Source of the DNA: Gammaproteobacteria bacterium
GTDB taxonomy: Bacteria; Pseudomonadota; Gammaproteobacteria; Natronospirales; REEB76
DNA length: 64,000 bases
Assembly (NCBI GenBank): GCA_035279405.1
Contig: DATEHU010000026.1
Coordinates: 450,147 to 514,146, forward strand
Direction: 5' to 3'
This document shows positions 1-11,024 of the stretch, piece after piece (position 1 is the first letter of the stretch; each line of letters starts with the position of its first letter). The notes under the pieces were generated by a model that saw only the letters and a list, made by a program, of their open reading frames with translations, ran no database searches and was not told the DNA's origin. The position numbers and the translations under genes were made by a program.

Positions 1-1306
1 CAACAGTCTCTGGCGCTCCAATATAGTAGAGGCCCACAGGAATAGGACCAATATTCGGCAAATCTGCCATATTCGGATTGTTAAGCCCCGCCCCATTTCC
101 AGAATATGCAGAGCCAACGGAGTACCGTTCGCCATTCTCATCACTGACATAGGTAACGATGCCAGTGGATTGGGAATATTCCCAGTGCAATCCCATCTGA
201 TCGTCAAGGTCTACAGGATCGTTTACAACATAGGCATAAAGATTCGGACCCGCTCCGGCAAACAAAATCGGATCCTTGCTGATCCAGCGTCCCGTCTGCG
301 GATCGTAATCCCTCGCCCCGAAGTGCACGAGGCCAGTACCTAAATCGTATAGTCCTCCCGCAAACCCGAACGGCTGAAACCCGGGGTTCGAGTCTGAGGA
401 GATGTTGCCCCAAGCATCGTAGGTGACCTGCTCGGCGACGGCGCCGGTCGAGGCGTTCACAATCAGCACCGGACTGCCGACCTGGTCGCTAATCACCCGA
501 TACTCGACGCCAGCCTTGATGATGTAATCCGGCACGTTCGGCCGGGTGCCATACACAAACTGCTCGACGATGTTGCCGCTGCCATCGAGTTCCGCCACCG
601 GTTCCAATTGACCATCGTACAAGAACCCTTCGGTAAGCGTGCCGTTCACTTCCTTGCCCACCCTGCGGTTCTGGCCATCGTAAAGATAGGTAACGGCTGT
701 TCCGCTTGGCAGCTTCACGGCCTGCAGGTTCCCCAGCACATCCCAGGTGTAGCTCGCCGTGCCGCCGGGATTGGTTTTGGTCAGCAGCTCGCCGTTGGCA
801 TTATAGGTATAGCTGTTGCTGCCAAAGGTCAGTAGCCGGTCCTGATCGTCGTAGGTCGCAATCATCGCGGCATTCACGCTCACGCGGTTGCCGTTCTGGT
901 CATACCCATACGAGGCCACCGGAAGGCCGTTCTCGGTCACGGCATTGAGGCGGCCGTCCCCATCATAGCCGTAGAGCCAGGTGGCCGTGGTTCCGTTCAC
1001 AGTCTCCGTCTTTTGCGTGATCCGGCCGAGGTTGTCGCGCGTATAGCCCACACTGTAGAGGTTCGTGGCGCCATCAGTCACAGTGTCGGTCAGCGGTTCA
1101 CCAAAGCCGTCGTAGGTCACCGCGCTGGTGACACCGCCGAGCGTGCTGCCGGTAATCAAGCCATCGCCGGGATCGCGCGTGAGGGTTTCGTCACCGGCGC
1201 CGGTGAGCAGACCGTCATTGTCAAAGTCATAACCTCTCGCCGGCAGACCAAACAATCGAAATCGAACAGCCAGCAAATTAGTCGCCTTTGTTAGCCCTCG
1301 TTTCAA
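1..1306 (-). CDS. Rhs/YD-repeat protein tip with Tlde1-like (DUF2778) C-terminal toxin domain, partial
   Basis: The minus-strand frame is open from 1306 to the window edge, about 435 codons, and continues outside. It carries YD-type repeats (for example YLYDGQNRRVGKEVNG) and the conserved Rhs core end: GLYDLGTGLVHFGARDYDP, then GRWISKDPILFAGAGPNLY. After the core the text changes to HWEYSQSTGIVTY, YSGNGAGLNNPNM and NIGPIPVGLYYIG, which match the start of the Tlde1/DUF2778 domain, a peptidoglycan-targeting L,D-transpeptidase-like fold known from secreted effectors. The catalytic His/Cys part lies beyond the edge. A TGA at 1309-1307 closes the frame upstream and no ATG occurs before 865. TTG at 1306 or at 1276 (behind AAGG) are the only early starts. 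Full Rhs proteins exceed 1000 residues, so this looks like a displaced (orphan) Rhs tip. Toxin function is inferred. Confidence 0.8.
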   Translation of the reverse strand, partial: MKRGLTKATNLLAVRFRLFGLPARGYDFDNDGLLTGAGDETLTRDPGDGLITGSTLGGVTSAVTYDGFGEPLTDTVTDGATNLYSVGYTRDNLGRITQKTETVNGTTATWLYGYDGDGRLNAVTENGLPVASYGYDQNGNRVSVNAAMIATYDDQDRLLTFGSNSYTYNANGELLTKTNPGGTASYTWDVLGNLQAVKLPSGTAVTYLYDGQNRRVGKEVNGTLTEGFLYDGQLEPVAELDGSGNIVEQFVYGTRPNVPDYIIKAGVEYRVISDQVGSPVLIVNASTGAVAEQVTYDAWGNISSDSNPGFQPFGFAGGLYDLGTGLVHFGARDYDPQTGRWISKDPILFAGAGPNLYAYVVNDPVDLDDQMGLHWEYSQSTGIVTYVSDENGERYSVGSAYSGNGAGLNNPNMADLPNIGPIPVGLYYIGAPETV

Positions 1307-1358: not shown

Positions 1359-3842
1359 TTACTGTCGCGGACTACCCAGGACATCCTTCATGTCCACTGC
1401 CACAGATGCGCCGAAGTAATTTTGAAGTCCCGGGAGCGTAACATCCGGCTTACGCTGGAACTTGTCGGTAATGGCTCCATCAGGCCCGCGCGTCAAAGAG
1501 TGTTCGTAAACTATGAATTTGTAGATGAACGTGATCGGCCTATCCGGGTCCATCAACTCGTAAATTATCGGGATATATATATTCTGATTGGAAGCAGCGA
1601 TATCCCAGTATGTCAAGTAAGTAGTTTTCGGCGGGGTGGGCACCGAAGCATCGAGTGATGTAATTAGAGAGCCGTTTAGATCGTATACGTTTAACACCGC
1701 ATTACCGTCATATAGGTTCAGTAGATACATCCTGTCCTGTGTCAGAGCACAATATGCACCATAAATTGGATCGGTAGGAAACGCCGCAAGTTTATTTCCA
1801 TCCAAATCGGTAAGCAGGCTAACCGAGTCAGAAGAAACGCCAAAACCATTCAAGCACATGCGCGAATCGGTGACACTGGCCTTGTAAATGTACCATAAAG
1901 GCAAATTCGTGATAGAAGATTTAAAATTCCCGGCATGATCGTATAAATTTACAATTCCCGACGAATAATTATATTTTTGATTTGCAAATACATACACATG
2001 CTCCGTGTTGACAGCAATCGCATTGAGATACAAAGGGATGCTTTCGCCTTTGCAATCCGAAGCTGCAAACTGTTCGCCGTTCCGCATCGCCAAGTAATAG
2101 CAATCGTAATTCGTATTGTATGGAGCTATATTTTCAATCGTATAATCCACTCCGTCATAGACCGCCAGACTCTCTGGAAGCACCAACGTACCCAGGTGAA
2201 CACTGCTTGAATGGATTTTATAGGCAGCATCGAAACTTTCTACTACGGATGCACAGTTGTAATACCACGTACACCAGCTCGACATGCTAGCTGCAAGGTA
2301 TACATACTGATCGCCAGCTTTAATTAATTTACCCGCGATACCTTCTTCCGAACCAATTTTTCCCTGGAACACCAGGATGTATTCACCGGATGTGGCAGGC
2401 GCCGGATCCGTCGGTGCGGGAAACTGGATGGGGTACCCATCGGCGGGATCGCTGCCGGCCGCGGCGATACTCACGTTCGACCAGCTCGCATCGGGTACCG
2501 GATAGCGATTACCGTCAGCATCGTCGTAATATAAGGTAAGCGTCCCGTTCGACATCGGGAAGCTGCTCTTGTTGATAACGAGATAACCTCCCTCAGTATT
2601 CGGATCCGGCTGCACGTCAAGCCTGCCGCGAAAGAAATAATTAACGAGTCCGGTACCGTAGCCAATTATCTGCGGGAAAAGAAGCTTCTCGCCTTCCTGA
2701 TAGTTAACGTCATTGAGAACATACAGCGGATGACTGCCAAAATTCGTCAGGTCGGCATTGAAAAGCGAATCCGTGGATGCTTTTTGATTAACCACTGGCG
2801 TGTGGGAATACAAGTCATATCCCGTAGTGGAATAAAATTTCATCTTGCACGAATCTGGTTGGCCGCAGACTTTGGCAATGCTGGAAGGCATTGGCCTGTT
2901 CATTTCCTGAAATACTTGAGATACAGGCTCCTCGGTAGAGCCCCCATCCAGGATAGGCAACGGGTAAATGGCATTCAGGCCATTAATCGTACCCAAGGTT
3001 CCAGCGCTGAAAAAATTACGATTGGTATATTCGGCTATACCCTGCCCATCTCCTGTTGCCCAGAAAGCACGCGCGTTGTCAAAACTCGGTACATAATTCG
3101 CATTGGTTTCAAGATATTGGCGATACGCATACTGCTCATATCGGCTGGGATGATAAAGCCCGACTGGCCAGCATTTCCACGAGTCACAGTGCATGTCATT
3201 TCGCACATGCTGAGGTTGCGCCATATCCTCCAGTAAGTGCAGAGCGTGACCAATGGACAAGAAAAGATCGCCGAAATTCTGCTCCCTGCCGGGTCTATCG
3301 GGCATCGTCAGAGCGTTATAGAAATACTGTTCTGCATTTTTCAGAGAATAGATTTGCTGCTCATCGCCAAACCCGAGCATGGAACATGGACCAGTGGCGA
3401 TTCCCGTGGCCCAATCCGGATTATCAACGCTCGCAACATGATTGACGAAGAGATATTCAAAGTTAAGAGGATGCACATGATTGAGGATGGGATCGTAAAA
3501 ATGGCAGAACGACCGGTATCCTTCGTCCTCAAGTGCGGCGCCGGCGGCTATTAGATCTTGGATATCTAATGGAGTTCTTGCGAGAAACGTAGGGCCGGCA
3601 GGTCCCAAATCTATTGATTTTCCAGCTTGGTTATTAGGAAATAGCTGTGTTTTATCTGAGTAGCCCTTTAGTCCAAGGTCATCAAGTACATTAGAATTTG
3701 GGCCATGTAAAGCTACCGTAAGGACGGAATTTTGGGCAGAGTTGTTTGATAGTCGTTGGTGCGTGCCAGGTTCATAAGCCATACAAAAAGAAATCCAAAT
3801 CAGGAACCAAGAACCAAAAATAATTAGCGCGACACATTTCAT
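1359..3842 (-). CDS. secreted zinc phospholipase C-like protein, full-length copy (module B, second gene)
   Basis: 827 residues. An N-terminal signal peptide ends near MAYEPG. Residues of about 23-300 resemble the all-helical zinc-dependent phospholipase C / S1-P1 nuclease fold: an early His in YEPGTHQRLS, GAALEDEGYRSFCHFYDP, and the helix motif GHALHLLEDMAQPQHVRND with the spaced His/Asp expected for zinc. The remaining roughly 500 residues are beta-rich with no domain I can name; they include turns like those of propeller repeats. The ATG overlaps the TGA of the upstream lipoprotein gene (ATGA), so translation is probably coupled. A paralogous N-terminus is encoded at 4582-5076. Enzymatic activity is inferred from motifs only. 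It could be a degradative enzyme or an accessory to the Rhs protein encoded just downstream. Confidence 0.72.
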   Translation of the reverse strand: MKCVALIIFGSWFLIWISFCMAYEPGTHQRLSNNSAQNSVLTVALHGPNSNVLDDLGLKGYSDKTQLFPNNQAGKSIDLGPAGPTFLARTPLDIQDLIAAGAALEDEGYRSFCHFYDPILNHVHPLNFEYLFVNHVASVDNPDWATGIATGPCSMLGFGDEQQIYSLKNAEQYFYNALTMPDRPGREQNFGDLFLSIGHALHLLEDMAQPQHVRNDMHCDSWKCWPVGLYHPSRYEQYAYRQYLETNANYVPSFDNARAFWATGDGQGIAEYTNRNFFSAGTLGTINGLNAIYPLPILDGGSTEEPVSQVFQEMNRPMPSSIAKVCGQPDSCKMKFYSTTGYDLYSHTPVVNQKASTDSLFNADLTNFGSHPLYVLNDVNYQEGEKLLFPQIIGYGTGLVNYFFRGRLDVQPDPNTEGGYLVINKSSFPMSNGTLTLYYDDADGNRYPVPDASWSNVSIAAAGSDPADGYPIQFPAPTDPAPATSGEYILVFQGKIGSEEGIAGKLIKAGDQYVYLAASMSSWCTWYYNCASVVESFDAAYKIHSSSVHLGTLVLPESLAVYDGVDYTIENIAPYNTNYDCYYLAMRNGEQFAASDCKGESIPLYLNAIAVNTEHVYVFANQKYNYSSGIVNLYDHAGNFKSSITNLPLWYIYKASVTDSRMCLNGFGVSSDSVSLLTDLDGNKLAAFPTDPIYGAYCALTQDRMYLLNLYDGNAVLNVYDLNGSLITSLDASVPTPPKTTYLTYWDIAASNQNIYIPIIYELMDPDRPITFIYKFIVYEHSLTRGPDGAITDKFQRKPDVTLPGLQNYFGASVAVDMKDVLGSPRQ

Positions 3843-4585
3843 TTAATTAGCCCTTCCAAAAATGCTTTGGGTGAACCACATTTGGGCGCGACCTTCAGAT
3901 ACCACTGATCGTTATAAATAAAGTCTCCAGTAATGCCGCCAATAGGATATCCAACGGCCTGACTAATCGCCTCCCTTTCCAACTCGAGAACACGCAGCAT
4001 ATTTGGGATTTTCTTCCAATTGCATTGAGTGGGCATATTTGTGATAAAAATGCCCATATCAATATTGATTCCGTCGTAATCCATCACAACGCTTTGTGCA
4101 CTTCTATTCTGATAATCCATTTTCTGAAACTTCTTCAACTTCATCTGACGATCCGCCCAAGTAGACCCTGTCCTCACAACATTGGCGGTGCTGACACCAT
4201 TGTCGAATCTCCCGGAGTGATAACCGAACTTGAAAACATACATCTCAGGATCACCCTCGTTCATGAAGCCATTGCAGGCTGGCATGATTGGCCCCCAACT
4301 GGGCAGGTGAAATCGTCCTTCCTTGTCCGTTACGGCCTCCTCCACGTTGGCAGCACCGCAGGGCAAGCTGTCACCGGTGAGACTTCCCGGCCTAAGTTGC
4401 CAATAGGCCACTACAACTGCGCCCTGGATGGGTTTGCCGGTATTCGCATCTACTACTTGGGAATCAATGGGCGCGGCGCTGAGCGGGATCTTGCCAAACG
4501 CGCAACCACTCCCAGCGCCCATACAAATAAATAGAACCAAGATTAGAATAAATGCGTGATTACTGTGATGTTTGCTGTAAGTCAT
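3839..4585 (-). CDS. lipoprotein with carboxypeptidase-regulatory-like beta domain (module B, first gene)
   Basis: 248 residues. The signal peptide ends in a lipobox (GAGSGC), predicting a lipid-anchored protein. The mature protein begins with a beta-sandwich-like segment, DSQVVDANTGKPIQGAVV, typical of carboxypeptidase-regulatory-like domains, followed by a WGP motif. The C-terminal half (CNWKKIPNMLRV, CGSPKAFLEGL) is shared with the paralogue at 5073-5810 but belongs to no family I recognise. The start overlaps the preceding truncated gene and the stop overlaps the next start, both as ATGA. Its strict pairing with a phospholipase C-like gene suggests that the two products work together at the envelope; this is inference. 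Confidence 0.75.
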   Translation of the reverse strand: MTYSKHHSNHAFILILVLFICMGAGSGCAFGKIPLSAAPIDSQVVDANTGKPIQGAVVVAYWQLRPGSLTGDSLPCGAANVEEAVTDKEGRFHLPSWGPIMPACNGFMNEGDPEMYVFKFGYHSGRFDNGVSTANVVRTGSTWADRQMKLKKFQKMDYQNRSAQSVVMDYDGINIDMGIFITNMPTQCNWKKIPNMLRVLELEREAISQAVGYPIGGITGDFIYNDQWYLKVAPKCGSPKAFLEGLIK

Positions 4586-5076
4586 ACCGTAATTTCCAAT
4601 TGGAGTTTCTCATTAGCATCATTCAATGAATACGACTGGCCGGCCACCGGCAGGAGCGAATCTGCCAAGGCCCAGTTAGGTGCACTGTAGAGAACTGGAA
4701 CAGCTTTGATGTTCAGCGGATCGTAATGCCCAGGAACCGGATCATAGAAATGAAACAATGACCGGGGGAATTCATCTTCAAGTGCAGCACCTGATTTTAT
4801 CAAATCCAAGATAGTGTCTGATACCGGAGCGGTATAGAGTTTCCCATCAGGGCCTAATAAGATAGATTGGTCACGTTGAGGGTTAGGGAACACCTGAGTT
4901 GGTTCTGAGAATTCCTTAAGATCTAAATCACCAAGAATTCCGTCTTTGGTACCAAGAATAGATTGCCGCACAGCCTGCTCTGACAATCTCTGGTGGGTGC
5001 CGGGTTCATATGCAAAACTCGGAAGCACTGCGAGCGCCAAACTAATAATAGAAATTATTAAAAGTGGATTCTTCAT
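4582..5076 (-). CDS. truncated secreted phospholipase C-like protein (module A, second gene)
   Basis: 164 residues when started at the ATG at 5076, which overlaps the upstream TGA (ATGA) and opens directly into a signal peptide (MKNPLLIISIISLALAVL). A longer in-frame start at 5115 would run into the upstream gene and spoil the signal peptide. Residues 20-145 align with the 827-residue paralogue: YEPGTHQRLS, then GAALEDEFPRSLFHFYDP. Similarity stops around YSLNDANEK and the frame ends after LQLEITV, before the His-rich zinc helix. It therefore lacks most of the presumed catalytic site. It is either a remnant left by duplication and deletion or a short protein retained for another role. The intact reading frame and preserved coupling to the next gene argue against simple decay. 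Confidence 0.65.
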   Translation of the reverse strand: MKNPLLIISIISLALAVLPSFAYEPGTHQRLSEQAVRQSILGTKDGILGDLDLKEFSEPTQVFPNPQRDQSILLGPDGKLYTAPVSDTILDLIKSGAALEDEFPRSLFHFYDPVPGHYDPLNIKAVPVLYSAPNWALADSLLPVAGQSYSLNDANEKLQLEITV

Positions 5077-5810
5077 TTTTCTAATCCTTCGATAAACGCA
5101 CGTGGTGATCCGCACTCGGGTGCCATTTTCTGCATGAATTGATCCTGATCCCTTCTAGTTAAATCAATATCAATCGAATCAATGTTATGGTTCCCGGCCT
5201 TATTAAATAATGTTCTCTGCGCAATGATGGCTCTCAACATGTTTGGAATTTTGCGCCAATTGCACTCCGCGGGCATATTCACGATGAAGTTTGCTAGATC
5301 ACCATTCAAGAGGGAGAAGTCGTTTTCATAACTACCGACTGCATGACTATTGAGATCCATATTTTGGTACTGCTGTAATTTGATCGTCTCCCCATTCCAA
5401 TCTACCTGCGCCACCGATACCGGCTTGGTGAAGTCGAGCCCGACACCGCCTGCCTTGCGAATATGCACATAACCGGGCTTGAAAAAATACACCAGCGGAT
5501 TGCCGTTGCGCATACGCCCACAGGCTCCCTTCACCGGTCCCCAACCCGGAATGCGGAACGAGCCATCCTTGTCTGTGACAGCTTCCGCCACATTTACCGC
5601 TCCACAGGGCATGCCATCACCGGTGATGCTGCCCTGATACAGTTCCCAATAGGCCACGACCGCCACTCCCTGAATTGGTTTGTCGGTATCGGCATCTACC
5701 ACCCGCGCATACACGGGATCGGCAGAATACGTCCGCTGCGGCTGCTGACAACCAAACGAGGCCATGGCAGGCAGGGCAACCAACAGCAATGCAACAGTAT
5801 TAAGTTTCAT
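5073..5810 (-). CDS. lipoprotein with carboxypeptidase-regulatory-like beta domain (module A, first gene)
   Basis: 245 residues. The lipobox ASFGC follows a 20-residue signal sequence. ARVVDADTDKPIQGVAVV marks a carboxypeptidase-regulatory-like beta-sandwich. The C-terminal part (CNWRKIPNMLRA, CGSPRAFIEGLEK) matches the paralogue at 3839-4585 closely, so the two arose by duplication. The start lies three bases after the stop of the propeller/Ig gene, and the stop overlaps the next ATG by four bases. Function unknown; probably anchored in the outer membrane or periplasm. Confidence 0.75.
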   Translation of the reverse strand: MKLNTVALLLVALPAMASFGCQQPQRTYSADPVYARVVDADTDKPIQGVAVVAYWELYQGSITGDGMPCGAVNVAEAVTDKDGSFRIPGWGPVKGACGRMRNGNPLVYFFKPGYVHIRKAGGVGLDFTKPVSVAQVDWNGETIKLQQYQNMDLNSHAVGSYENDFSLLNGDLANFIVNMPAECNWRKIPNMLRAIIAQRTLFNKAGNHNIDSIDIDLTRRDQDQFMQKMAPECGSPRAFIEGLEK

Positions 5811-5813
5811 GGG

Positions 5814-8309
5814 TTACATTGAATCCAGGCGCCACACGCCATTTTGATCTTTGATGAAGTAGATGAAGAACAGATTGCCGCCTACAGGCAAGGGCCTGAC
5901 GACGGCATATTCACTTGTGGATGCAGAAATCGAAGACCGGAGCAGCGGTGAAAAGGTACTCACAATCTGCTGCATGTGCGGCAACAGCACATCGAACGCT
6001 GTCCCATAATTCTGCTGCGCGGTGTAATCCAGTGCGTTCATGGCCGCCGGCTTGCTGCCACTGACCAGCGCGGTGGTCATGTCGCCCCAGATGCCCTGAA
6101 ACAGAGCGTCCAACTGCTCTGGATCCTCCACGACTACACTAAGTTGCGCCTGGTATTCAACGTAATTGGCATCGGTCAGGATCAGCGTGACCACGTAGAT
6201 GCCGGGGGTTGAATACGTGTAGCTCAAAGTCGCGGCGGGATCGGAGACGTCGACGAAGTTACCTAATCCGGAATAGTCAATGTGAAGGCTTTGTATGGCA
6301 GTCTGACTCAGAAATTGGTACTCAAAAGTCATCGCGAGCGGAGCGATACCAACTGCGATCGGAGTGGCGTTCAGAATCAAAGAGCTTGAGCCAGCACTGC
6401 TTACATTTAGCGTCTGTGTCACCGTAAGCCCACCGGACGTTGTGGCAGTGACGGTGAGCGTATTGACGCCTGGCACAAGCGAGAGATTGTTTGCAACCCA
6501 TTGACTTCCACTCAGTACTGCCGGCACGCCGTTCACCGTGATGCCCGTGTTGGCAGGGCCCTGAACTGTGCCGAAAACATTCATCACATCACCAGGAATA
6601 TTTGCACCTGCAGCAGGGGCGGTGATTGCGAGTCGCAGCGGCACGTCGCTGCCGTGCATGTAGAACGGCGCGGTGACATTGCCGGCCGAATCCGTGAGTG
6701 TGATGGCAAACTCGTCGCTCGCTTTGCCGGGAACGGAGATTGAGTAAGAACCGTCGCTGTTGACGGTACCCGTAGCAGTCTGCCCGGTGCGAATGTTGGT
6801 GACGCTGACACTTGCCGCGTCCGCCGCCACACCTCCCGCCTCCCCTACCAATGTGACACTACCGGCTGGGCCAGGCGCGAAGCCGATAAAAGCGCCACCA
6901 GGCAAGGGTGGCGGCACAGTGTCAATGGTGAAAGTGACGGACGCCGGCTTGGACTGATTGCCAGCATAATCGGCCACTGTCGTGGACAACGTGTAAGTTC
7001 CGTCCTGTAAAACAGAAGCCACACTACATTGAGCATCTGTGTCGCTGGCCAGACAATTGATTGGGAGCGGTGCGCCATCGCTCGTCACCTTCAGGGTAGT
7101 GGAATCCACACCCGAACCTGTGTCGATCCAAGCGACCACAAATGTGGGCTTACTGCGGTTGGTGAAAGTCAAATCCTTGGGCGCTGTGAAGGTTATTGTT
7201 GGCGGGAGCGTATCCACGTAGAGCGCCACGTGGCGTACGCCGTGATCTCCAAACCAGATTCCTTGCCAGCCGACCCCGCGTTCGCGGTCGCAGCGGGCCG
7301 AGTGGCCTCCTGAACTGTGTTCGGTTGGTCGTAATCCGGACGGACAGTCTGGAGTGCTCCCGGTGAAGCTCCTGACGTCAATGGTCTGCTTCAGAGTGCT
7401 GTCGGTGGCGTACTGTTCTAGGTAGCGGGCGTCGGCTACCCAGGTAGTATGGTTCAATGGATCGGAGACGAGATCCACTATGCGACCGCGATGATCAATG
7501 TCGCCATCATGATCGGGATCGCTGGCAAACGGCGTGAGCGTAAAAGCCAGATTGCCGCTTTCGTCTATGTAGCTCAGCGTGGAATCGCCCGCGGCCCACA
7601 AGCCGCCCTGCCCGTCCGGGGCAATATGGTCATTGATATCGCCGGATTCCCGGGCCGTGAATACCTGATTGCCGCCGGCATCGTAACGGCTGACAGTATG
7701 TCCAGAAACCACCCAGACTTGATCAAGTGCTGCGTCGTAAGCCAAGGCTTGCGGATCGCGTTCCAGCGGCACTGTAAACAAGGTGGTTCCAACCTTGTCC
7801 AGCACCATGAGCTGACGGCGTTCACCAACCCACAAATGCGAGCGCGTCGGATCAAGGGCCATACCCTCGATTTGGCGATGCAAATCAAGTGTGGCTTTGA
7901 TTTCGCCATTGAGATCCAGCCGATAAAGCCGCGCCTGCATCCCGATCCAGAGATTGCCGGCCTGGCCGTCTACCACCATGCCATCAGGAGCGTCCCCGAG
8001 GAATTCACGGGGCAGCTGCTTGTTCAGAAGCTGCTGGCCTTGGGAGTCGAACACCCAGAGATGCGAGTGACTGTATAACCAGACGCGATTGTTTTGCGGA
8101 TTGACCGCGAGCGCCTGAATCAGCGGCAATCCCGCCAGCTCCAGCTCCGGCGTGCCGTTGGCCGGCGAAACCTTGAATACCCGCTGAGCGGAATTGACCC
8201 ATAGCACCCGGGCGTCATGAACGGCTGAACCGGTAAGAATAATCGAGACAGGAATGACCAAAAGACAGGCTGCAGCCAGACGCCGCATCCAGAAAGACAC
8301 CCCAAGCAT
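5814..8309 (-). CDS. secreted beta-propeller / Ig-like (PKD-type) surface protein
   Basis: 831 residues from the ATG at 8309, which has AAGGAGG four bases upstream; a GTG at 8330 lies before that ribosome site and is less likely. A signal peptide (MRRLAAACLLVIPVSIIL region) is followed by about 300 residues of NHL/YVTN-like propeller repeats (NNRVWLYSHSHLWVFD, GNLWIGMQARLYRLD, SHLWVGERRQLMVLD). Next come several bacterial Ig-like domains (DTLPPTITFTAPKDL, DYAGNQSKPASVTFTID) and one PKD-like segment (YSTPGIYVVTLILTDANY). The last 110 residues (LDALFQGIWGDMTTALV onward) are helical and unassigned. It is first in the island operon and probably extracellular. Its role with the downstream lipoproteins and Rhs tip is unknown. 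Confidence 0.75.
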   Translation of the reverse strand: MLGVSFWMRRLAAACLLVIPVSIILTGSAVHDARVLWVNSAQRVFKVSPANGTPELELAGLPLIQALAVNPQNNRVWLYSHSHLWVFDSQGQQLLNKQLPREFLGDAPDGMVVDGQAGNLWIGMQARLYRLDLNGEIKATLDLHRQIEGMALDPTRSHLWVGERRQLMVLDKVGTTLFTVPLERDPQALAYDAALDQVWVVSGHTVSRYDAGGNQVFTARESGDINDHIAPDGQGGLWAAGDSTLSYIDESGNLAFTLTPFASDPDHDGDIDHRGRIVDLVSDPLNHTTWVADARYLEQYATDSTLKQTIDVRSFTGSTPDCPSGLRPTEHSSGGHSARCDRERGVGWQGIWFGDHGVRHVALYVDTLPPTITFTAPKDLTFTNRSKPTFVVAWIDTGSGVDSTTLKVTSDGAPLPINCLASDTDAQCSVASVLQDGTYTLSTTVADYAGNQSKPASVTFTIDTVPPPLPGGAFIGFAPGPAGSVTLVGEAGGVAADAASVSVTNIRTGQTATGTVNSDGSYSISVPGKASDEFAITLTDSAGNVTAPFYMHGSDVPLRLAITAPAAGANIPGDVMNVFGTVQGPANTGITVNGVPAVLSGSQWVANNLSLVPGVNTLTVTATTSGGLTVTQTLNVSSAGSSSLILNATPIAVGIAPLAMTFEYQFLSQTAIQSLHIDYSGLGNFVDVSDPAATLSYTYSTPGIYVVTLILTDANYVEYQAQLSVVVEDPEQLDALFQGIWGDMTTALVSGSKPAAMNALDYTAQQNYGTAFDVLLPHMQQIVSTFSPLLRSSISASTSEYAVVRPLPVGGNLFFIYFIKDQNGVWRLDSM

Positions 8310-8632
8310 AAAGCCTCCTTGCTGCTTCACCCGCCATCCTTGGGCGATTGCCAGAGAGCTATTCTTTATGTGCTGAACATATCAAATCCCGGTACAAAGT
8401 CCCCAAACACCACCCCTGACCCAGTGCCAAAAAGGCGTGGACGATTCAGATGTACTTGCCGGGTTTCACACCAATTGGTTAGGCACTCTTTGCATTAAGG
8501 TATAGCACAGATTTAAGAAAGCAGAGAAATATTGATGCAGCTGATTATCTTATGTCTCACGCAGCAGCAGATTGCACACAGTCGGCTGTTCTCAAGGCTT
8601 TGCGCGCTTCAACGCATATAGCGTGTCCGAGG
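8310..8632. other. island/core boundary spacer
   Basis: About 320 bases between the end of glmM and the start of the island operon, AT-richer than the glmM side. The promoter for the island genes should lie here, but I find no convincing -35/-10 pair. A stretch around 8393-8432 (read on minus: GGCACTGGGTCAGGGGTGG, then a G-rich run) reminds me of repeat text found near REP-type mobile elements; I cannot confirm this by eye. No transposase or RNA gene is visible. Confidence 0.4.
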
Positions 8633-9970
8633 TCAGCGGGTCGCGGCTGCCCGCACCGCTGCGGCGATGCTTTCGGCGAAAGCGTGAAGGCTGGCGGCTT
8701 CTTCCCCCTCGATCATGATGCGGATGACGGGCTCGGTGCCCGAGGCTCTGAGCAATACCCGTCCGCGACCATTCAGTTGCCGCTCGACATCCGCGACGCT
8801 TGAGCGGATGGATGGATGTGCAAGGTCTACGCGCGCACCGGTGCGTACGTTCACCAGCGTCTGCGGGTATTTGCGGATTCGAGAAGGCAGGCGAGCAAAG
8901 TCATAATCCAGCGGGTGCAAGGCTTCGAGCACCTGCAAGGCGGCAATGACGCCGTCGCCGGTGGTGGTGCGATCGAGGCAGATGATGTGACCGGAGTTTT
9001 CTCCGCCCAATATCCCGCCCTGCTCTTCGAGCAAAGCTAGAACGTAGCGATCGCCCACCTGGGCGCGCAGAAACTCAACGCCTGCGTCACGCAATGCCTG
9101 CTCCAAACCGAGGTTGCTCATCTGCGTGCCTACGACCGGGCCACGCAGCGCCTTGTGCTGCTTGCGCGTGAGCGCGATGACGAACAGCAATTCGTCTCCG
9201 TCCACCAACTGACCACGGTTGTCCACCATCAGCACGCGATCGCCGTCACCATCGAAGGCGATACCCAGGTGCGCGCCGGTCTCCAGAACCTTCGTCCGCA
9301 AGGCTTCCGGATGCATGGAGCCGCAATCCTTGTTGATATTCAAGCCGTCCGGTTGCGTGCCGATGCTGGTCACCTGCGCACCCAGTGCCGCAAAAACCTC
9401 GGGTGCCACTCGGTACGTGGCGCCATTCGCACAATCAAGCACCAGGCGCAGGCCTGCAAGTGTCAGCTCGGGAGCCACGCTGGACTTGCAGAACTCGATG
9501 TAACGCGCCGCCGCATCCTGCATGCGGCGCACGCCGCCGAGCAACGCGGAATCCACAGTCGCGAAAGGCCGCTCCAGCTCGGCTTCGATGCGCAACTCGA
9601 CCTCGTCGGCGAGCTTGCGGCCGTCGGCGGAAAAGAACTTGATGCCGTTGTCCTCGAAGGGATTGTGCGAGGCACTGATAACTACGCCTGCCTGTGCATG
9701 CGTTTCGCGCGTAAGGTAGGCAATCGCCGGTGTGGGCATCGGACCCAGCAATTGCACGTTCACGCCCGCGGCCGACAGCCCGGCCTCGAGCGCCGATTCG
9801 AACATGTAACCCGAGATGCGCGTGTCCTTGCCGATCAGCACCGTGCCACCGCCGTGCGGCGCCAGCACCCGGCCCGCTGCCCAGCCAAGACGCAGCACGA
9901 AGTCCGCGCTCATCTGCGGGCTGCCCACTTTGCCGCGGATACCGTCCGTGCCGAAATACTTGCGCGTCAT
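8633..9970 (-). CDS. glmM: phosphoglucosamine mutase
   Basis: 445 residues, the same length as E. coli GlmM. It converts glucosamine-6-phosphate to glucosamine-1-phosphate in the cytoplasm, feeding UDP-GlcNAc for peptidoglycan and [16 protein letters not shown] is the family N-terminus. The phosphoserine loop [10 protein letters not shown] lies near residue 101, the metal loop DGDGDRV in the middle, and the sugar-phosphate loop [12 protein letters not shown] near the C-terminus. The ATG at 9970 has GGGGAGGA just upstream; a longer frame to 10006 is unsupported. folP lies directly upstream, the usual gammaproteobacterial pairing, so both are probably co-transcribed. glmM marks the core side of the boundary with the AT-rich island. 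Confidence 0.97.
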
Positions 9971-10836: not shown

Positions 10837-10971
10837 AAATTCAACCTCAATCGCAGAAATGTCAGGGACCCGACATGCAATATCACACTGAGCGCGCAGG
10901 TTGAGGGAGCGAGACAACTCCCGGCTGCGACATATCCGCCGGATTCCAGCGCGTGGCTACAGAATGACACA

Positions 10972-11004
10972 TAAAGAAAAAGCCGGCGCATAGCGCCGGC
11001 TTTT
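10972..11004 (-). terminator. rho-independent terminator after ftsH
   Basis: A perfect 9-bp stem (AGCCGGCGC / GCGCCGGCT) with a 3-base loop at 10981-11001, followed on the minus strand by TTTTTCTTT. It sits 20 bases after the ftsH stop and would end the rlmE/ftsH transcript before folP. Confidence 0.9.
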
Positions 11005-11024
11005 CCATTCTGTGTGCTTGCGTC

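What the first reader, a model, noticed from the sequence alone, without database searches (positions are those of the whole stretch)
1359..5810. Tandem two-gene modules of lipoprotein plus phospholipase C-like protein feeding an Rhs tip
Two paralogous gene pairs lie head to tail (5810-4582 and 4585-1359). In each, a lipoprotein with a carboxypeptidase-regulatory-like domain is followed by a secreted protein with a zinc PLC/S1-P1-like helix motif. All three junctions inside the run are ATGA overlaps, and the run ends 50 bases before an Rhs/Tlde1 tip. Translational coupling at every step and duplication of the pair as a unit suggest that the two products form a functional set, perhaps an effector with its anchor, adaptor or protector. 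I know of no named system with this composition.
Basis: partly seen in the sequence, partly recalled or inferred. Interest (0 to 1): 0.72.

Follow-up and report, generated by a model that had tools for sequence, protein, structure and literature searches.

The report
Three-gene lipoprotein–zinc enzyme module

Summary
The gene pairs and all three ATGA overlaps are real, but the reading needs correcting. (1) The unit is a trio: A (5814-8330; β-propeller/Ig scaffold with a conserved ~114-aa C-terminal domain, "AT"), B (lipoprotein) and C (exported zinc phosphoesterase-like protein). In 369 gammaproteobacterial genomes AT, B and C occur in 14, 15 and 14, and all three in 13 (P~1e-21), always in the order A-B-C where contigs allow. 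(2) Only C2 carries the zinc helix. C1 stops at residue 164 and lacks five of the eight side-chain ligands that are invariant or nearly so in full-length C. (3) B-truncated C-B-full C recurs in three distant genomes; other loci have two or three B genes for one C. Each resolved locus has one full C, always last. (4) AT, B and C diverge while A's scaffold stays 80-98% identical (paralogues of G118), and the scaffold can carry an Rhs/teneurin-type region instead (G004). (5) Rhs genes lie beside the trio in only two species of one genus. Best reading: a polymorphic secreted phospholipase/nuclease-like effector (C) with lipoprotein immunity or partner (B, kept in extra copies) on an exchangeable scaffold (A), analogous to TslA/TilA. 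The module is solid; antibacterial function is inference. Structure predictions failed for the key domains.

The parts
5814..8330 (-). Gene A: exported scaffold, 838 aa; propeller-like N-terminal half, bacterial Ig domains (Big_13, Big_6, Glucodextran_B), C-terminal AT domain
5814..6158 (-). AT domain of A: conserved 114-aa C-terminal domain ending ..DGVWR(L/I)xxM, found directly upstream of B in every locus where both are on one contig
5073..5810 (-). B1: lipoprotein-like protein, 245 aa, weak CarboxypepD_reg (TTR-like) domain; closest to the B of G007 and G001
4582..5076 (-). C1: truncated copy of C (164 aa), keeps the first part of the zinc-ligand set, lacks the HxxxD helix and later ligands
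3839..4585 (-). B2: second lipoprotein-like protein, 248 aa; slightly closest to the B of G004 (55%)
1359..3842 (-). C2: full-length exported protein, 827 aa; N-terminal half with zinc PLC/S1-P1-type ligand set, C-terminal half predicted beta-propeller-like
3189..3239 (-). C2 residues 202-218, HLLEDMAQPQHVRNDMH: zinc-helix motif carrying His202, Asp206, His212 and His218
2640..6040 (-). Divergent block (AT tail + B + N-half of C) between the window and G004: 48-71% DNA identity where alignable, flanked by mostly 83-93% (A) and about 91-100% (C-half, one 100-base bin at 77%)
1..1306 (-). 5'-truncated Rhs tip with Tlde1 domain, continuing left of the window; not part of the conserved trio

Best explanation
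A-B-C is a three-gene polymorphic effector module. C is exported by the Sec route; signal-peptide cleavage would leave Tyr23 as the new N-terminus, which with His28, Asp106, His114, His202, Asp206, His212, His218 and Glu236 would hold a trinuclear zinc site of the phospholipase C/S1-P1 nuclease type (ligands shown by conservation; metal, cleavage and activity inferred). C would attack phosphodiesters, most likely phospholipid head groups, of neighbouring cells. B is made just before C, usually with overlapping reading frames, and is a membrane-anchored lipoprotein that binds C's catalytic half as immunity protein and/or tether (inferred). A is a surface or extracellular scaffold whose AT domain docks or presents C (inferred). 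The AT-B-C set changes by recombination and tandem duplication while A's scaffold stays more constant. After duplication the older C is cut short while the older B stays intact, leaving extra B genes beside one working C, as expected if old B copies still protect against relatives' C variants (pattern shown, purpose inferred).
For: Co-occurrence in 369 genomes: AT 14, B 15, C 14, all three in 13, P about 1e-21; order A-B-C in all loci resolved on one contig, with -4 nt B-C overlaps in most. Near-invariant ligand set in full-length C; exceptions are Phe for Tyr23 in one and Asn, Arg or a gap at Glu236 in three. Tyr23-to-His28 spacing and the HxxxD(x5)H helix match the S1/P1 pattern; S1 nuclease coordinates zinc through its cleaved N-terminal Trp plus His/Asp side chains (PMC5201275; detailed P1/PLC numbering from own knowledge). 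The mature C profile scores 27.6 against S1-P1 nucleases versus a maximum of 23.9 in 300 column shuffles. B-truncated C-B-full C in the window, G187, G097 and G118, and B x2 or x3 with one C in G074 and G050. In G118 stretches of the A scaffold are 80-98% identical between paralogues while AT, B and C are mostly 20-60%. The G004 scaffold heads either AT-B-C or a teneurin/Rhs-type region, with 243 bp of the glmM 3' end duplicated between them. Close analogue: TslA, an N-terminal lipase domain with lipoprotein immunity TilA encoded upstream in multiple non-identical copies (PMC10730906).
Against: No activity, metal or interaction is shown. AlphaFold2 gave pLDDT 37.5 for C and 39 for the A tail, so neither zinc fold nor AT fold was verified. 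Similarity to S1-P1 nucleases is confined to the helix motif once signal peptides are removed (18 columns, HHalign probability 4.6%). No cognate secretion system was identified. dS is saturated or nearly so in most comparisons, so selection on the extra B copies and on C1 could not be judged; C1 shows no more relaxed dN/dS (0.17) than B1 (0.19) against G001. Variability of AT-B-C could partly reflect fast evolution of surface proteins rather than conflict. In G001/G007 and some G118 pairs the N-half of C is the better conserved half, so 'polymorphic catalytic half' is not general.
Confidence: 0.42

Rival explanations
1. A-B-C is an ordinary secreted phosphate- or lipid-scavenging enzyme complex: C is a degradative phosphodiesterase, B its lipoprotein tether or folding helper, A a surface scaffold for substrate or attachment. 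Extra B copies widen ligand specificity and truncated C copies are duplication debris.
For: Sec-type signal on C and lipoprotein signals on most B; scaffolds built from PKD, Ig, beta-helix and NHL modules typical of adhesion or extracellular enzymes; close B-C coupling also fits an enzyme-chaperone pair.
Against: Patchy distribution (about 4% of sampled Gammaproteobacteria), six contigs with paralogous loci in one genome with divergent AT/B/C on near-identical scaffolds, loss of C but retention of B in arrays, and scaffold sharing with an Rhs/teneurin-type gene are more than a housekeeping enzyme would need.
Confidence: 0.33
2. B-C pairs are cargo or accessory genes of the neighbouring Rhs element.
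For: In the window the run ends about 50 bases before an Rhs/Tlde1 tip; in G004 an A-scaffold gene continuing into teneurin/Rhs-type domains lies downstream.
Against: No Rhs-like sequence, even at E up to 10, in the trio loci of the other genomes; the window Rhs fragment is 5'-truncated.
Confidence: 0.05
3. The trio is a variable surface antigen or receptor-binding complex (for phage evasion or kin recognition), with C a catalytically dead zinc-binding scaffold.
For: Mosaic recombination, propeller and Ig modules in A and a propeller-like C-half.
Against: The metal-ligand set is kept through divergence down to about 23-29% identity, which argues for catalysis.
Confidence: 0.12
4. The tandem arrangement is an assembly artefact of a metagenome-derived genome.
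For: Several related genomes are fragmented, and the G118 C175 repeat copies are 98-100% identical.
Against: Window copies are only 47% identical and join in one open run of overlapping frames on a 579-kb contig; the same array type occurs in G097, whose genome is listed with a single contig.
Confidence: 0.02

Closest known systems
TslA-TilA (type VII-secreted phospholipase toxin and lipoprotein immunity, Staphylococcus; PMC10730906)
   Same: Lipoprotein genes immediately upstream of a secreted protein whose N-terminal half is the (putative) lipid hydrolase; variable number of non-identical lipoprotein copies per locus; recombination in the locus; catalytic half N-terminal, other domain C-terminal.
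   Different: TslA is a phospholipase A in Gram-positives exported by T7SS with helical partners; C is a putative zinc phosphodiesterase with a Sec signal in gammaproteobacteria, B gives no DUF576 hit, and there is a third gene A.
T6SS lipase effector-immunity pairs Tle/Tli (PMC9860674)
   Same: Putative phospholipase paired with an adjacent lipoprotein expected to act in the periplasm.
   Different: Tle3 has an alpha/beta-hydrolase fold and works with VgrG; a T6SS link was not examined here; C carries its own Sec signal.
S1-P1 nuclease (PF02265) / zinc-dependent phospholipase C (PF00882) superfamily
   Same: N-terminal aromatic residue 5 residues before His, HxxxD(x5)H helix, further His/Asp/Glu ligands; C matches in 18 columns better than all 300 shuffles.
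   Different: No Pfam hit; about 400-aa N-terminal half with long insertions and an extra propeller-like half; outside the motif no detectable similarity.
Het-C toxin domain (Zhang et al. 2012, PMC3482391)
   Same: Another divergent relative proposed for PLC/S1-P1, present in polymorphic toxins, also with borderline profile similarity.
   Different: C gives no Pfam hit to Het-C at E up to 1; Het-C is described in toxins of T2SS, T6SS and PVC type with no immunity family listed.
Rhs/teneurin polymorphic toxins
   Same: A's scaffold (propeller plus Big_13/Glucodextran_B) is shared with a G004 gene that continues into TTR_TEN, FN-plug_TEN and TEN_NHL domains; both vary downstream of a shared leader.
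   Different: The A-B-C trio has no YD-repeat shell; the variable set is a domain plus two separate genes.

Membership tests
Zinc PLC / S1-P1 nuclease superfamily | Full set of His/Asp/Glu zinc ligands plus mature N-terminal residue | tested here: met
   Tyr23, His28, Asp106, His114, His202, Asp206, His212, His218, Glu236 conserved in full-length C, with Phe for Tyr23 in one and Asn, Arg or gap at Glu236 in three; the one-to-one match to S1/P1 ligands is by spacing, not by structure
Zinc PLC / S1-P1 nuclease superfamily | All-alpha PLC/P1 fold | tested here: inconclusive
   AlphaFold2 pLDDT about 30 in the N-half; no PDB sequence relative
Zinc PLC / S1-P1 nuclease superfamily | Sequence membership in PF00882, PF02265 or Het-C | tested here: not met
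   No hit in 17 C members at E up to 1; profile comparison significant only over the helix motif
Zinc PLC / S1-P1 nuclease superfamily | Phospholipase or nuclease activity | not testable with these tools
   needs biochemistry
Lipase effector-lipoprotein immunity pair (TslA/TilA-like, Tle/Tli-like) | Putative lipid hydrolase encoded next to a lipoprotein | tested here: met
   B directly upstream of C in all resolved loci; lipoprotein-type signal with Cys in most B, absent in the two B copies of G074; that C is a lipid hydrolase is itself inferred
Lipase effector-lipoprotein immunity pair (TslA/TilA-like, Tle/Tli-like) | Multiple non-identical immunity copies per effector | tested here: met
   B x2 or x3 per full C in the window, G050, G074, G187, G097
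Lipase effector-lipoprotein immunity pair (TslA/TilA-like, Tle/Tli-like) | Immunity binds and neutralises the enzyme | not testable with these tools
   no complex model or assay
Lipase effector-lipoprotein immunity pair (TslA/TilA-like, Tle/Tli-like) | T6SS or T7SS delivery | not tested
   C has a Sec-type signal; secretion-system genes were not searched
Rhs polymorphic toxin | YD-repeat shell in or next to the module | tested here: not met
   Only the window's truncated tip array and a teneurin/Rhs-type gene in G004; none near the other trio loci
Polymorphic toxin system (general) | Constant leader with variable C-terminal domain and variable downstream partner genes | tested here: met
   G118 paralogues: scaffold stretches 80-98%, AT/B/C mostly 20-60%; window versus G004 block
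Polymorphic toxin system (general) | Variable domain is a toxin | tested here: inconclusive
   AT has only weak hits to DUF4864 (5 of 19 members, best E 0.006) and a failed model; C is the more likely enzyme
CarboxypepD_reg / TTR-like (PF13620) | Score above Pfam gathering threshold for B | tested here: not met
   18.3-18.4 bits for window B1/B2 and 21.5 for a G050 B versus cut-off 32.3; similarity only

The most novel reading that the evidence does not exclude
A previously unnamed class of polymorphic antagonism module in Gram-negatives in which the exchangeable unit is the C-terminal tail of a surface scaffold plus two separate genes (lipoprotein immunity B and Sec-exported trinuclear-zinc hydrolase C), with immunity genes accumulating upstream as duplicated cassettes whose effector half is cut away, and which can share its scaffold with Rhs/teneurin-type genes.
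Probability: 0.3. Interest if true: 0.78.

Novelty: new variant of a known kind. Interest (0 to 1): 0.62.

Why it matters
None of A's C-terminal domain, B or C is recognised above a curated threshold in the family libraries searched, yet the three travel together in a fixed order across distant gammaproteobacterial families. If C is an effector and B its immunity protein, this is an unannotated interbacterial weapon that carries its own evolutionary record (stacked B genes with severed C remnants), and a Gram-negative counterpart of TslA/TilA built from a different enzyme. It also gives a two-gene toxicity test that can be done directly in E. coli K-12.

Tried and rejected
Rhs association as a general rule: rejected. 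Zinc helix in both copies: rejected, C1 is truncated. 'Constant C-half, variable N-half' of C as a general rule: first suggested by window versus G004, then dropped because G001/G007 and some G118 pairs show the opposite; the 91-100% C-half is better read as one recent exchange. Full-length HHalign match to S1-P1 nucleases (P 3e-4) was inflated by signal peptides; with mature regions it shrinks to the helix motif. AlphaFold2 for C and for the A tail: poor confidence, not used for fold claims except a propeller-like C-half. dN/dS of B and C copies: dS saturated or nearly so, mostly uninformative. Phage or plasmid carriage: no match for C2 in plasmids or phages, none in viral contigs; one broken homologue on a Pseudolysobacter antarcticus replicon, annotated only as hypothetical proteins. 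Anti-phage defence: no PADLOC hit. Spread beyond Gammaproteobacteria was hardly tested: a 299-genome phylum sample gave only the window genome, and the listed rows of that sample were all of the same class.
Full report
OBSERVATION. The minus strand from 8330 to 1359 holds A (5814-8330), B1 (5073-5810), C1 (4582-5076), B2 (3839-4585) and C2 (1359-3842). B1-C1, C1-B2 and B2-C2 overlap by ATGA, and A ends 3 nt before B1. C1 is 164 aa, and its closest relatives are the C proteins of G007 and G001 (55-57% identity) rather than C2 (47%). Beyond C2 lies a 5'-truncated Rhs/Tlde1 tip, followed to the left of the window by further Rhs tips and small genes that may be their immunity partners.

THE MODULE. 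Protein searches in 95 relatives found C and B in exactly the same eight genomes. Profile searches of 369 gammaproteobacterial genomes gave C in 14, B in 15 and the C-terminal domain of A ('AT') in 14, with 13 genomes holding all three (hypergeometric P 6e-22 to 5e-21). Of the four exceptions, G221 and G314 are cut by contig ends and G231 and G316 have lone, weak B-like genes. Wherever contigs allow, the order is A-B-C, and B-C overlaps of 4 nt are usual. A's N-terminal part is built from different modules in different genomes: propeller/Ig in the window, K319L-type PKD in G074, FG-GAP in G054, beta-helix in G118 and G324, NHL in G326. Only the last 114 aa (AT) are shared by all. None of B, C or AT reaches a curated threshold in Pfam or NCBIfam, and PHROGs and PADLOC give no hit to the proteins tested.

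THE ENZYME. Across the 17 aligned C proteins, identity to C2 falls to about 23%, yet Tyr23, His28, Glu105-Asp106, His114, His202, Asp206, His212, Asp216, His218 and Glu236 are kept. The exceptions among full-length copies are Phe for Tyr23 in one, and Asn, Arg or a gap at Glu236 in three. The mature N-terminal aromatic residue lies 5 residues before a His, and the helix reads HLLEDMAQPQH, as in S1/P1 nucleases and zinc PLC. S1 nuclease binds zinc through its cleaved N-terminal Trp and His/Asp side chains (PMC5201275). Profile comparison with PF02265 members found in this class matches this helix better than any of 300 column-shuffled controls, but nothing beyond it. The fold itself is unverified: AlphaFold2 was poor, apart from a propeller-like second half. 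Among the truncated copies the site is incomplete in the window, G187 and G118, whereas the 379-aa copy of G097 keeps all the ligands.

DUPLICATION AND EXCHANGE. B-truncated C-B-full C occurs in the window, G187 (two truncated copies), G097 and G118 contig C175, where the last C runs off the contig. Tandem B genes with one C occur in G050 (three) and G074 (two). A tandem duplication from near the A/B junction to inside C would give this layout in one step; in G118 the duplicated unit even includes the tail of AT. In every fully resolved locus exactly one C is full length, and it is the last. G118 has six contigs with trio genes; stretches of their A scaffolds are 80-98% identical while AT, B and C are mostly 20-60%. 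Between the window and G004 the DNA is mostly 83-93% identical through A, drops to 48-71% from about 6040 to 2640 (AT tail, B, N-half of C), then rises to about 91-100% in the C-half, apart from one bin at 77%. In G004, 243 bp of the glmM 3' end and 967 bp of the A scaffold are repeated downstream of C, where the scaffold continues into teneurin-type TTR, FN-plug and NHL domains instead of AT. The same leader therefore heads either AT-B-C or an Rhs/teneurin-type gene, which may explain why an Rhs tip sits next to the window trio. No Rhs sequence was found near the trio in the other genomes, so Rhs is a neighbour by shared scaffold, not a part.

MECHANISM. Shown: the conserved trio, ligand conservation, signal and lipoprotein-type sequences, recurrent duplication with truncation of C but retention of B, and divergence of AT, B and C against a steadier scaffold. 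Inferred: C hydrolyses phosphodiesters outside the cytoplasm, B restrains or anchors C, and A presents it. The closest functional analogue is TslA/TilA, where non-identical immunity lipoprotein genes stack upstream of a toxin whose lipase domain is N-terminal, and the authors suggest the extra copies protect against toxin variants of other strains (PMC10730906). Tle/Tli pairs also use lipoprotein immunity (PMC9860674). The main rival is an ordinary secreted scavenging enzyme with a tether or chaperone.

LIMITS. The mosaic comparison rests on one species pair. Lipobox assignments are by eye and simple pattern. Secretion systems were not examined. No fold, complex or activity has been shown.

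Noticed in passing
window 1-1306 and L005 11381-16453 (left of the window): Array of 5'-truncated Rhs tips separated by small genes that may encode immunity proteins (174 aa with a signal-like start; 171 aa membrane-like); the first tip carries a Tlde1 domain.
   Followed up: partly
L049 (G004) 4610-4852 and 3357-4318: 243 bp of the glmM 3' end (81%) and 967 bp of the A scaffold (84%) are duplicated downstream of C, suggesting insertion of the trio between glmM and a scaffold-teneurin/Rhs-type gene.
   Followed up: yes
L110-L115 (G118): One genome carries six contigs with A-B-C genes on near-identical beta-helix/PKD scaffolds (one A open frame of 3,726 aa); the assembly breaks at these repeats.
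   Followed up: partly
window 10967-11015 and 5605-5636: Self-complementary stretches: about 50 bp between folP and ftsH (possible terminator) and about 32 bp inside B1.
   Followed up: no
L174 (NZ_CP035703.1) 7671-9103: Broken homologue of C on a 17-kb replicon of Pseudolysobacter antarcticus, annotated as two overlapping hypothetical proteins.
   Followed up: partly
L055 10682-12649 (G074): The two tandem B genes of G074 lack a recognisable lipobox, unlike most B proteins.
   Followed up: no
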